This document shows positions 8,181-10,527 of a DNA stretch of 64,000 nt, one piece after another. The stretch covers positions 372,001 through 436,000 of the forward strand of contig NZ_POXG01000001.1 in the NCBI RefSeq assembly GCF_003044565.1, in the 5' to 3' direction. The notes beneath the pieces are model-generated. The model was not told where the DNA came from and did no database searches. It saw nothing but the letters and a program-made list of their open reading frames with translations. Each line of letters starts with the position of its first letter. Positions within the stretch are counted from its first letter, which is position 1. This DNA comes from Neisseria sicca (GTDB lineage Bacteria > Pseudomonadota > Gammaproteobacteria > Burkholderiales > Neisseriaceae). The position numbers and the translations under genes are program-made.

Positions 8181-8225
8181 AAAAGGTCGTCTGAAAACCC
8201 AAATTCAGGTTTCAGACGACCTTTT
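8181..8225. terminator. Uptake-sequence hairpin terminator
   Basis: AAAAGGTCGTCTGAAAACC pairs with GGTTTCAGACGACCTTTT. It sits between the small membrane protein and the convergent prfH, with T/A runs on both sides. Confidence 0.75.
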
Positions 8226-8279
8226 CCCGTATATCAAAAACACGGGGGATTACGGCATTACCAAAGCGGCTGTCTCAAC

Positions 8280-8924
8280 TCAACGTTTAGAATCCGACTT
8301 CTCCTTAAACTCCGTTCCGACGAACGTCCGTTTCGGATTGCCACGTTCCACCTGATAAAGCCGGCTGTGTTGCGCGCGGGCGTAATCGTCGGTCTGCCCG
8401 GCATAATGTTCCGCCAGCTTTTGCGCCAGCAGGGTCAAAGCCAATTTTTTGTTGGCATGCTGGCTGCGTTCGCTTTCGACGCGTACGGAAATACCGCTTG
8501 CCTTATGAGTGGCACGGACGGCACTTTCAGTTTTATTGACGTGCTGCCCGCCTTTGCCGCCCGAACGGCAGGTTTGAAACTCAATTTCGCTTTCAGACGG
8601 CATTTCAGGCATATCGGGCATACGGAAAACGCCAATATACCAGTTTTTACGCGGATGCTTGGGGCGGACGGGGCTGGTGCATATCCATTGGAGCGAACCT
8701 TGCCAACGCTGTGCCAAAGTTTCGGCATGATTGCCGTCCACTTTAAGCATCGCAGACATAATACCGTGTTTATCGGCGGTTTCGGAGATGATTTCCACTT
8801 CGATACCTTCCGCCTTCGCCTCAGCAAGCAACCTGCCCAATACGAAACGAGCAAAGATGCGGCATTCGGCAGGCCCTTGCGCAGTGGAAATTTGCAGATA
8901 AACCGTTTGTAAATTTTGCTTCAT
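8280..8924 (-). CDS. prfH: Peptide chain release factor H homologue (PrfH)
   Basis: 214 aa from the Met at 8924, short for a class I release factor because it lacks the codon-recognition domain. It keeps the peptidyl-tRNA hydrolysis motif, GGQ at about residues 125-127 within GGKGGQHVNKTESAVRATH, and a basic C-terminal tail. PrfH proteins encoded next to RtcB are known to act on ribosomes whose 16S rRNA was cut in the decoding centre by colicin E3-type toxins, releasing the stalled peptide so that RtcB can reseal the rRNA. GGAGAA lies just upstream, overlapping the end of rtcB, so translation is coupled. The five-codon longer start at 8939 is less likely. Confidence 0.93.
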   Translation of the reverse strand: MKQNLQTVYLQISTAQGPAECRIFARFVLGRLLAEAKAEGIEVEIISETADKHGIMSAMLKVDGNHAETLAQRWQGSLQWICTSPVRPKHPRKNWYIGVFRMPDMPEMPSESEIEFQTCRSGGKGGQHVNKTESAVRATHKASGISVRVESERSQHANKKLALTLLAQKLAEHYAGQTDDYARAQHSRLYQVERGNPKRTFVGTEFKEKSDSKR

Positions 8925-8926
8925 AT

Positions 8927-10066
8927 TTATTCTCCGCATCCGCTGCTGGTTTTGTAAGTCAAAACAGGTTTGAACTGGGCGACCAATTCAATCAGACCAG
9001 CGTTTTTCATGGCTGAAATAACGCTGTCTATGTTTTTATAAGCCTGCGGAGCTTCTTCAAAAATCAGAGCCTTATCCTGACAAACGACCACGCTGCCGAA
9101 GGCGGTTTGGCGCAGGCTGTCGACGGAATATTTGTGTGACAGGCGACCTTTGCATTCGCCGCGTTGCCATTTCCGTCCTGCGCCGTGTGCCAATGTGTTC
9201 AACGAAATTTGGCAATCTTGGGTCGGCAGAACCAGATAGCTATAATCGCCGCGCGAGCCGGGTATCATGACCAAACCTTTATCGGCGGGCGTTGCTCCTT
9301 TGCGATGCAGCCAGCCGGTTTGCCCTGCGATTTCGGTTTGCTCGAGGAAATTGTGATGCACGTCGAGCAGACATTCGCCTTCCGTACGCCAGCGGTCGAG
9401 CATTCTGGCGGCAATCAGGCGGCGGTTTAGACCGGCGAACTCAAGGGCTGCCTGATGTTCGGCAAGATAGTCCGCCGCAGCCTCGCTGCCTTCCGCCAAA
9501 CCTCGATGACCGTAGGCTTCGACGTGGCGTCGCAAAATCTGCTGACCCAAGCCGCGCGAACCGCTGTGTACCAACAACTGCAAACGGTCTGAATCAAAGG
9601 CAGCGGGAAGCAAATCGTCGCGGTAAACAGTTTCAACGGTTTGCAACTCGGCAAAGTGATTGCCGCCGCCGATGGTGCCGACTGCGAGGTCGTCTGAAAA
9701 CGGATAATCGGATGCGGATTCTCCGAGTAAGATTTCTTGTTCGTCTTGGCTCAAAGGCGTATCGATGTTGCCAAGCTGCTTGGCGAGTTTGACGGGTTTG
9801 AGCTTGGCAGCGGACAAATCGGTTTGCCAAAACGCCATGCCGCAGCCGATGTCGTTGCCGATGAGTGCGGGGTAAAAATGGTGATCGCTGAAAAAAGCTG
9901 CGCCGACGGGATAACCGCGCCCCGCGTGCAAATCAGGCATACCGGCTACGCGCAGTATGTGCGGCAGCTTGGCGGTGGTTTCGAGTTGGGCGACGGCGTT
10001 GCCTTCAATCCAGGTTTCTGAATCAGCGATGATGTGAATATGATGGGGATGTTGATAATTGCCCAT
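8927..10066 (-). CDS. rtcB: RNA ligase RtcB, PrfH-associated type
   Basis: 379 aa from the Met at 10066; the frame is open to 10099 without added domain content. RtcB joins 2',3'-cyclic-phosphate or 3'-phosphate RNA ends to 5'-OH ends using Mn2+ and GTP. Visible signatures: the metal-binding Cys in NDIGCGMAFW (about residue 75), GGGNHFAELQ, HSGSRGLG, DVHHNFLEQ, the GMP-pocket motif IPGSRGDYSY, and AHGAGR, whose His is the guanylylated residue in the family. The length is nearer the shorter RtcB2-type than E. coli RtcB. No rtcA or rtcR is adjacent; prfH follows at once, defining an rRNA-repair operon. A strong promoter lies about 280 bases upstream. Confidence 0.95.
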   Translation of the reverse strand: MGNYQHPHHIHIIADSETWIEGNAVAQLETTAKLPHILRVAGMPDLHAGRGYPVGAAFFSDHHFYPALIGNDIGCGMAFWQTDLSAAKLKPVKLAKQLGNIDTPLSQDEQEILLGESASDYPFSDDLAVGTIGGGNHFAELQTVETVYRDDLLPAAFDSDRLQLLVHSGSRGLGQQILRRHVEAYGHRGLAEGSEAAADYLAEHQAALEFAGLNRRLIAARMLDRWRTEGECLLDVHHNFLEQTEIAGQTGWLHRKGATPADKGLVMIPGSRGDYSYLVLPTQDCQISLNTLAHGAGRKWQRGECKGRLSHKYSVDSLRQTAFGSVVVCQDKALIFEEAPQAYKNIDSVISAMKNAGLIELVAQFKPVLTYKTSSGCGE

Positions 10067-10248
10067 GTATATGCTTTCTTTAACACGGACAGAGGGCAAA
10101 ACGAATCCAAACCGACGGCTTAAAAAGGAAACGCGGCTTGAAAATATACCGACTGCCGTCTGACGTTTTCAGACGACCTCTGTCCGATTGATGGGAAAGC
10201 AGCCCGAAGCGGGCGATAGGGAAAATGCGGGAACGCGTTGTCCGAAAA

Positions 10249-10308
10249 TCAGACCGACGCTTGGGCTGCAAAGAATGTGATTGAGCGGATTGAAGTATTG
10301 CGTGTCAT
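10249..10308 (-). CDS. Possible 19-aa leader ORF in the rtcB 5' leader
   Basis: ATG at 10308 has a strong AAGGAG ribosome binding site at the right distance. The reading frame runs 19 codons to TGA at 10249 and its peptide matches nothing I know. It lies inside the leader between the rtcB promoter and rtcB, about 180 bases before the rtcB start, and could be a regulatory leader peptide or a decayed gene start. Confidence 0.35.
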   Translation of the reverse strand: MTRNTSIRSITFFAAQASV

Positions 10309-10349
10309 GGCTGCTCCTTTCTTTGCATGTGAAAATTGAAAACAGGCGG

Positions 10350-10379
10350 ATTATAGGGGAAATGTTTGAAACGTTACAA
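10350..10379 (-). promoter_or_regulatory. Sigma-70-type promoter for rtcB-prfH
   Basis: Read on the minus strand, TTGTAA (10379-10374), an 18-bp spacer and a perfect TATAAT (10355-10350). Transcription would begin near 10343, giving a leader of roughly 275 nt before rtcB. There is no obvious sigma-54 -24/-12 element, unlike the RtcR-controlled rtcBA operon of E. coli. Confidence 0.65.
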
Positions 10380-10527
10380 TAAAACTGCGTTTTTTATGAA
10401 GAAATGTTGTATAACTGCCATAATGTAATGAAAACAAAAAAGCAGCCTGTTACACTACCCGAACCATCGTTTCACGTTATCAGACCGCCGCTTGGTTTAT
10501 CATCTATTTAAACCTGTTCCGACAGGC

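What the first reader, a model, noticed from the sequence alone, without database searches (positions are those of the whole stretch)
8280..10380. RtcB-PrfH rRNA-repair operon with its own promoter
Seen: rtcB (guanylylated-His motif AHGAGR, metal Cys in DIGCGM) overlaps prfH (GGQ, no codon-recognition domain), with the prfH ribosome binding site inside the rtcB end. Known: RtcB2/PrfH pairs rescue E. coli from colicin-E3-type cleavage of 16S rRNA. Inference: this Neisseria defends its ribosomes against contact-dependent or secreted ribotoxins from competitors. A sigma-70-like promoter, not sigma-54/RtcR, suggests different control from the E. coli rtcBA operon.
Basis: partly seen in the sequence, partly recalled or inferred. 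Interest (0 to 1): 0.75.

Follow-up and report, generated by a model that had tools for sequence, protein, structure and literature searches.

The report
rRNA-repair operon with ribosome-sensing leader
This Neisseria carries the known two-gene kit that frees and re-seals ribosomes whose RNA was cut by a toxin, and in front of it a short hidden reading frame and a possible RNA switch, shared by related operons in many bacteria, that may turn the kit on when ribosomes stop working properly.

Summary
The genes are as reported: RtcB2 (8927-10066, TIGR03073 519 bits) and PrfH (8280-8924, TIGR03072 241 bits), catalytic residues kept; a known rRNA rescue-and-repair pair. PrfH, however, lacks release-factor domain 1, not the codon-recognition domain, and the genes abut unless an alternative prfH start is used.

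Such an ORF precedes rtcB2 in 87 of 88 beta/gammaproteobacterial loci (background 10 of 131 ORFs). A covariance model built without the window finds its leader (E 2e-6), those of an E. coli chromosome and two plasmid copies, and none in 24 control RtcB loci. The ORF's end covaries with its downstream partner, while its reading frame differs between clades: RNA pairing, not peptide, appears selected.

In P. aeruginosa a like leader, PA5471.1, makes armZ (rtcB-like) respond to ribosome-targeting drugs. I infer that ribosome-state attenuation is widespread for rtcB2-prfH. Folding supports a switch in Pseudomonas and Enterobacterales, not in Neisseria. Toxin defence in this strain is untested.

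The parts
10350..10379 (-). sigma-70-like promoter, TTGTAA-18-TATAAT
   Evidence: consensus scan; TATAAT or TACAAT followed by CCG in the same place in 13 of 13 Neisseria
10314..10320 (-). Shine-Dalgarno sequence AAAGGAG of the leader ORF
   Evidence: read from sequence; invariant in the 13-Neisseria alignment; an SD-like site before the ORF in 87 of 88 loci was part of the search rule
10249..10308 (-). leader ORF, 19 codons (MTRNTSIRSITFFAAQASV)
   Evidence: model R1, built without the window, matches 10324-10061
10321..10326 (-). GCAAAG, can pair with CUUUGC (10273-10268) near the leader ORF end (H1)
   Evidence: complementarity read from the alignment; not statistically tested
10268..10273 (-). 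CUUUGC, 3' arm of H1, inside the leader ORF
   Evidence: not statistically tested
10263..10269 (-). GCAGCCC, 5' arm of H2, inside the leader ORF
   Evidence: covariation across clades; present in 12 of 13 Neisseria, GCAGCAC in the other
10199..10205 (-). GGGCUGC, 3' arm of H2
   Evidence: invariant in 13 of 13 Neisseria
10202..10214 (-). local hairpin Hc, GCCCG-CUU-CGGGC, which uses part of the H2 3' arm
   Evidence: alignment; formed in both predicted folds of the window leader
10195..10201 (-). UGCUUUC, 5' arm of H3, overlapping the H2 3' arm by three bases
10072..10078 (-). GAAAGCA at the rtcB ribosome-binding site, 3' arm of H3
   Evidence: 13 of 13 Neisseria have GAAAG there
8927..10066 (-). 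rtcB2, 379 aa RNA ligase
   Evidence: TIGR03073 519 bits; metal ligands and guanylylated His kept (roles recalled)
8280..8924 (-). prfH, 214 aa release-factor-like protein with GGQ
   Evidence: TIGR03072 241 bits; matches solved PrfH chains 7sa4 and 9mor

Best explanation
A known-type RtcB2-PrfH operon: PrfH frees ribosomes stalled by a cut in the 16S decoding centre and RtcB2 re-seals the RNA. Its expression is set by a leader ORF that reads the state of the cell's ribosomes. When ribosomes translate the leader ORF to its end they cover the 5' arm of H2; the downstream segment is then free to pair with the rtcB ribosome-binding site (H3), with Hc alongside, and output is low. When ribosomes stall early in the leader (damaged or drugged), the ORF end pairs with the downstream segment (H2), H3 is lost and rtcB2-prfH is made. 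Shown here by sequence: the genes, the conserved leader ORF, the conserved and covarying H2, an adjacent candidate H3, and in-silico switching in Pseudomonas and Enterobacterales. Inferred: that it switches in cells, that it does so in Neisseria, that it acts at translation rather than transcription, and that rRNA cleavage is a natural trigger.
For: Leader ORF with SD in 87 of 88 loci against 10 of 131 background ORFs and, by a slightly looser rule, 6 of 24 control RtcB loci; none of the background or control ORFs has the CUUUGCAG-like motif that 72 of 88 have. H2 in a sequence-only alignment of 40 leaders: 85% of cells paired against 19-49% when slid, covariation score 0.167 vs 0.106 (0 of 500 shuffles as high). 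The best uninterrupted helix between ORF and spacer covers the motif in 59 of 83 distinct leaders. In 30 leaders chosen for diversity from those 83: H2 Fisher p 4e-11, H3 p 9e-4, H2 and H3 arms within 8 nt in 21 against 6.8 expected. Model R1 finds leaders left out of its alignment: the window, E. coli SMS-3-5, two plasmid copies; none in 24 control loci at E<=1. The motif is read in two frames (53 vs 19 of 87 leaders, 15 without it). Simulated early versus late ribosome, 64 of 83 leaders with adjacent arms: mean P(H3) 0.35 vs 0.66; P(H2) 0.75 vs 0.05, the last low mainly because the late ribosome covers that arm. P. aeruginosa PA5471.1, a 13-aa leader, controls armZ in response to ribosome-targeting drugs (PMC3516279, PMC12057347, PMC13041342; passages).
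Against: For the window, equilibrium folding gives P(H3) 0.97 in every state and P(H2) below 0.001; the Neisseria group shows hardly any switch, nor do the Xenorhabdus, Burkholderiales, Vibrio and Pokkaliibacter leaders. Overall accessibility of the rtcB RBS does not differ clearly (16 of 83 up, 4 down; clade-level p 0.07). Singly, only 11 of 30 H2 and 4 of 30 H3 helices reach p 0.05. Looser duplex tests: 37 of 83 (H2) and 15 of 83 (H3) at p 0.05, and partner swaps hardly discriminate (10 and 8 of 83). In one search two of five measures (pairs changed on both sides, pair types) do not exceed the shuffles. H3 was sought only at the RBS, so its place there is by construction, and its columns pair poorly in the alignment. 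P. aeruginosa authors argue for transcription termination. Four of five further rtcB2 loci from a class-wide search show no R1 match at E<=1.
Confidence: 0.7

Rival explanations
1. The leader is a transcription attenuator: Hc or a similar hairpin stops RNA polymerase unless a stalled ribosome favours H2.
For: This is the model drawn for PA5471.1 in P. aeruginosa (PMC13041342, figure legend; PMC12057347 calls it proposed and in need of more work). In Neisseria Hc is a GC-rich hairpin followed by UGCUUUCC.
Against: No terminator-like site by the scan in 10050-10500. Complementarity between spacer and rtcB RBS exceeds shuffles over 30 leaders (p 9e-4), which a terminator would not need. Two older papers speak of translational attenuation (PMC3575510, PMC3884212; passages).
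Confidence: 0.35
2. The leader peptide itself is sensed: its sequence stalls the ribosome, as with macrolide-resistance leaders.
For: Within clades the peptide is conserved (TLCRSR in Pseudomonas; MQKNTTSLWAG in Comamonadaceae). In P. aeruginosa codons 3-4 matter in a cca mutant.
Against: The same RNA motif is read in two frames across clades, and even within Neisseria (LCSP-type in 6, FFAA in 7 of 13).
Confidence: 0.15
3. The operon is simply constitutive from its sigma-70-like promoter; the leader ORF only sets mRNA stability or basal level.
For: A promoter-like site is present; folding of the window leader predicts no switch.
Against: Conservation and covariation of the leader across beta- and gammaproteobacteria; the P. 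aeruginosa relative is drug-inducible.
Confidence: 0.15

Closest known systems
RtcB2-PrfH operon of E. coli (ATCC 25922; Maviza 2022, PMC9223846; PrfH structure 7sa4)
   Same: same two families and order, same near-overlap; the E. coli SMS-3-5 copy carries the same type of leader (72 bits)
   Different: chromosomal site differs (beside metX here; between yafP and pepD in SMS-3-5); RtcB about 54% identical to E. coli plasmid copies; the leader is not mentioned in the parts of that paper I read (abstract, discussion, passages)
PA5471.1-armZ-PA5470 of Pseudomonas aeruginosa (MexXY regulation)
   Same: 13-codon leader ORF upstream of an rtcB-like gene adjacent to prfH, alternative RNA pairing proposed, response to impaired ribosomes (passages)
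   Different: there tied to the MexZ/MexXY drug pump; the window's leader has 19 codons, another frame, different H2/H3 letters and a strong Hc hairpin. The P. aeruginosa sequence itself was not examined here, only 25 leaders of other Pseudomonas
E. coli rtcBA with RtcR/sigma-54
   Same: RtcB-type RNA ligase
   Different: another RtcB family, activator-controlled promoter, no PrfH (all recalled); the window genome holds no other RtcB

Membership tests
RtcB2 (TIGR03073) | score above the curated family cut-off | tested here: met
   519 vs 272 bits
RtcB2 (TIGR03073) | metal ligands and guanylylated His (D72, C75, N136, H137, H167, H254, H294; roles recalled) | tested here: met
   present in the window; H294 in 87 of 88 loci, the other six in 88 of 88
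PrfH (TIGR03072) | score above cut-off, GGQ, domain 1 missing | tested here: met
   241 vs 167 bits; GGKGGQ; residues 8-197 align to RF2 128-322
RtcB2-PrfH module | the two genes adjacent and likely co-translated | tested here: met
   2-nt gap in the window; prfH downstream in 86 of 88 loci
RtcB2-PrfH module | rescues cells from colicin E3-type 16S cleavage | not testable with these tools
   needs experiment; reported for E. coli in PMC9223846 (abstract and discussion)
PA5471.1-type leader | short ORF with SD upstream of an rtcB-like gene | tested here: met
   10308-10249
PA5471.1-type leader | alternative pairing of the ORF end and the downstream segment | tested here: inconclusive
   H2 conserved and covarying across clades, but the window's own fold shows no switch
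PA5471.1-type leader | induction by ribosome-targeting drugs | not testable with these tools
   needs expression data

The most novel reading that the evidence does not exclude
The rtcB2-prfH leader is a general, old bacterial sensor of ribosome integrity: an RNA switch whose ligand is the ribosome's own ability to finish a tiny ORF, conserved at RNA level and indifferent to the peptide. Drug-induced MexXY efflux in P. aeruginosa would then be a later borrowing of an rRNA-damage alarm, and plasmids move the alarm with the repair genes.
Probability: 0.5. Interest if true: 0.8.

Novelty: new member of a known kind. Interest (0 to 1): 0.6.

Why it matters
In the papers I could search, I found nothing on how rtcB2-prfH is switched on outside P. 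aeruginosa (listings and passages), apart from a remark that the E. coli K-12 relative is inducible by an agent that disturbs translation. A shared leader makes the question directly testable in laboratory E. coli, joins the ArmZ/MexXY drug response to 16S rRNA repair, and suggests that cells sense ribosome damage by failing to translate a short ORF. No Rfam 15 family matched the leader in the window or in ten other loci (gathering thresholds).

Tried and rejected
Global duplex energies and mate-swap tests gave weak discrimination, so I used contiguous helices, position and adjacency. RBS accessibility as a switch read-out gave only a trend. Solo leaders elsewhere: in 46 genus genomes R1 gave 30 matches at E<=0.05; 13 are the 13 rtcB2 leaders (five of them in the model's own alignment), and 17 are spans of 35-107 nt elsewhere. 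One of the 17 (G014, 30 bits) scores above the window's own leader in that search (24 bits, E 0.007), so R1 alone is not specific at whole-genome scale. I fetched four of the 17: three look like the SD and start of an ordinary ORF and one is a small intergenic ORF. In the window's own genome the leader is the best of nine matches at E<=1. Toxin co-occurrence by PF09000 gave too few cases. A GGQ pattern scan was badly written (it missed true PrfH) and was replaced by tblastn. PADLOC and Rfam gave nothing for the operon. A phage search with the third gene of other Neisseria found nothing. The primary PA5471.1 paper (Morita 2009) and Tian 2022 are not held, so remarks on conservation there cannot be excluded.

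Rows dropped: five of the 80 loci (L036-L040) are Neisseria already used. The 88 loci hold 83 distinct leaders after removal of the one without ORF and of duplicates. Alignment A2 used 40 of them (ten Comamonadaceae, the window and its near relatives, and near-duplicates left out). The 30 leaders were chosen by me.

Full report
The genes. On the minus strand the window holds rtcB (10066-8927, 379 aa) and prfH (8924-8280, 214 aa). Both exceed curated cut-offs by wide margins (TIGR03073 519 vs 272 bits; TIGR03072 241 vs 167 bits). PrfH's best relatives of solved structure are the PrfH chains 7sa4 and 9mor. RtcB aligns with RtcB proteins of solved structure, and the seven residues I checked as metal ligands or nucleotidyl acceptor (roles recalled) are present. 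It is the only RtcB found in the genome. So the pair is a regular RtcB2-PrfH module, described by Baranov 2006 (PMC1586002, passages) and reported to protect E. coli from colicin E3 (PMC9223846, abstract and discussion). Two details of the first report need correction: PrfH retains the codon-recognition region and lacks domain 1, and the genes abut rather than overlap if the start with the good ribosome-binding site is used.

Distribution. In the genus, 13 of 46 genomes carry TIGR03073 above cut-off and 14 of 46 carry TIGR03072 above cut-off; the fourteenth, G007, has only the last 102 residues of rtcB next to an intact prfH. The operon has different neighbours in different species: the metX side is shared by the window, L024, L025 and L031 only. 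It is patchy and has probably moved or been lost repeatedly (inference; no tree was made).

The leader. Aligning the DNA upstream of rtcB in the 13 Neisseria showed conservation concentrated in the leader: TATAAT or TACAAT, then GCAAAGAAAGGAG and an ATG, a 16-19 codon ORF, an invariant UUUGCAGC near its end, an invariant CGGGCUGCUUUC downstream, and GAAAG at the rtcB start. I then fetched rtcB2 loci from other bacteria (the best 80 kept of 301 relatives, so the set leans to close relatives). Counting the 13 Neisseria and 75 of those 80 (five are the same Neisseria loci), a short ORF with a Shine-Dalgarno-like site precedes rtcB in 87 of 88; the exception, L065, begins only 136 nt upstream of rtcB. 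The ORFs have 11-20 codons and end 79-231 nt before rtcB. By the same rule 10 of 131 other ORFs of those loci have such an ORF, and by a slightly looser rule 6 of 24 loci of other RtcB families; none of these has the conserved motif, which 72 of 88 rtcB2 leaders have. The 88 are not independent: 25 are Pseudomonas, and the set falls into 11 groups as I drew them.

Pairing. The best uninterrupted helix between leader ORF and spacer (H2) covers the conserved motif in 59 of 83 distinct leaders, with different letters in different clades: GCAGGUC:GGCCUGC or GACCUGC, GCAGCCC:GGGCUGC (Neisseria), GCGGGU:GCCCGC (Serratia), UCAGGCC:GGCCUGA (Xenorhabdus); Comamonadaceae, without the motif, have UGGGCUGGG:CCCGGUCCG or UGGACUGGG:CCCGGUCCA. 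A segment complementary to the rtcB ribosome-binding site (H3; sought only there) lies within 8 nt of the H2 3' arm in 64 of 83: CCAAUCC:GGAUUGG, UGCCAAUAC:GUAUUGGUA, UGCUUUC:GAAAGCA and others. In 30 diverse leaders the helices together beat dinucleotide shuffles (Fisher p 4e-11 for H2, 9e-4 for H3; singly 11 and 4 of 30 at p 0.05) and lie within 8 nt of each other in 21, against 6.8 expected. In an alignment made from sequence alone (40 leaders), H2 has 85% of cells paired, 19-49% when slid by one to three columns; cells with both sides changed (12 vs 3.8) and the covariation score exceed all 500 shuffles, whereas pairs with both sides changed (3 vs 2.2) and pair types (8 vs 7.6) do not. Related sequences can exceed shuffles without structure, and misaligned Xenorhabdus rows count against H2. 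Whole-region duplex energies were far less telling. H3 is in another register in Neisseria, and in the other 34 rows only 10 to 29 pair per column.

An RNA model made from those 40 leaders, which exclude the window, finds the window leader at 10324-10061 (36.5 bits, E 2e-6), other leaders left out of the model, E. coli SMS-3-5 (72 bits), a Klebsiella IncC plasmid (65 bits) and an E. coli plasmid (54 bits), each reaching the rtcB start, and none of 24 control RtcB loci at E<=1. It recovers 13 of 13 genus leaders, eight of them not in its alignment, though at whole-genome scale chance matches score similarly. Of five further rtcB2 loci from a class-wide search it matches L116 and not L117-L120 at E<=1; L120 has by eye a strong SD and a 12-codon ORF, and none was evident in L118 and L119. 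Among ten Comamonadaceae five match weakly, at the right place, and five do not. So the leader belongs to a large part of the family, not to all of it.

Peptide or RNA. The motif is read in one frame in 53 leaders (giving, for example, TLCRS or LCSP), in another in 19 (SFAGR, PFAGP, FFAA), and is absent from 15 of 87; both frames occur within Neisseria, 6 against 7, the window among the 7. This argues that the RNA pairing is under selection and the peptide sequence secondary.

What is known. In P. aeruginosa armZ (PA5471), an RtcB-like protein, is adjacent to prfH (PA5470) and preceded by a 13-codon leader, PA5471.1, through which ribosome-targeting drugs raise armZ (passages of PMC12057347, PMC3516279, PMC13041342). 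The 25 leaders I found in other Pseudomonas have 13 codons, 15 of them with Gln at codon 3, in keeping with the Q3 codon reported there. E. coli ykfJ, the K-12 relative, is reported as inducible by an agent that interferes with translation (PMC3516279, passage). I found no paper describing this leader outside P. aeruginosa in the listings and passages, but the primary paper of 2009 could not be read.

Mechanism. Folding each leader with a ribosome placed at codon 3 or at the last codon gives, over the 64 of 83 with adjacent arms, mean P(H3) 0.35 vs 0.66; H3 is higher by more than 0.1 with the late ribosome in 30 and lower in 2. P(H2) is 0.75 vs 0.05, but the late value is low mainly by construction. 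The effect is clear in Pseudomonas (0.15 to 0.67), Enterobacterales (0.16 to 0.80), the Aquitalea/Chitinimonas group (0.13 to 0.65) and Pseudoalteromonas (0.46 to 0.93), slight in Comamonadaceae, and absent or nearly so in Neisseria (0.78 to 0.86), Burkholderiales, Vibrio, Xenorhabdus and Pokkaliibacter; in the window P(H3) is 0.97 in all states. RBS accessibility as a whole shows only a trend. So the switch is inferred for the window by descent, not computed. Translation attenuation is my preferred reading because of the RBS complementarity; transcription attenuation, the published model for P. aeruginosa, is not excluded.

Toxins. A full PF09000 (colicin-E3-type) domain occurs in 1 of 46 genus genomes, one without the pair; two further partial matches lie in one genome without and one with the pair. 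This neither supports nor refutes ribotoxin defence in this strain.

Change on checking. Confidence in the best explanation was lowered from 0.72 to 0.70 because the position of H3 at the RBS is partly by construction of the search.

Noticed in passing
   Followed up: partly
L026, rtcB at 8223-9368: The guanylylated histidine (H294 of the window protein) is Tyr in this one of 88 RtcB2 proteins, suggesting a ligase without activity or with another role.
   Followed up: no
L031:8050-9005 (G007): rtcB reduced to its last 102 residues and no leader found, while prfH is open: prfH can outlast rtcB.
   Followed up: no
L165:2299-4179: On a conjugative IncC plasmid of Klebsiella pneumoniae the leader and rtcB2-prfH lie between qnrA6 and sul1.
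   Followed up: no
window 10150-10180: The spacer holds an inverted repeat resembling Neisseria DNA uptake sequences (recalled); similar repeats are in L024, L025 and L027-L030, single copies in L019 and L021, none seen in L022 and L023.
   Followed up: no
L121, L125, L126: Three loci of another RtcB family (below the RtcB2 cut-off) also have 13-14 codon ORFs with a Shine-Dalgarno-like site upstream, without the motif; possibly another leader family or chance.
   Followed up: no
L042:5092-5823: A 0.7 kb stretch between rtcB and prfH in a Conchiformibius MAG holds an ORF of 137 aa on the opposite strand.
   Followed up: no
L072, rtcB from 3961: The rtcB frame is open for only 299 codons in this Pseudomonas locus, with prfH found further downstream.
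   Followed up: no
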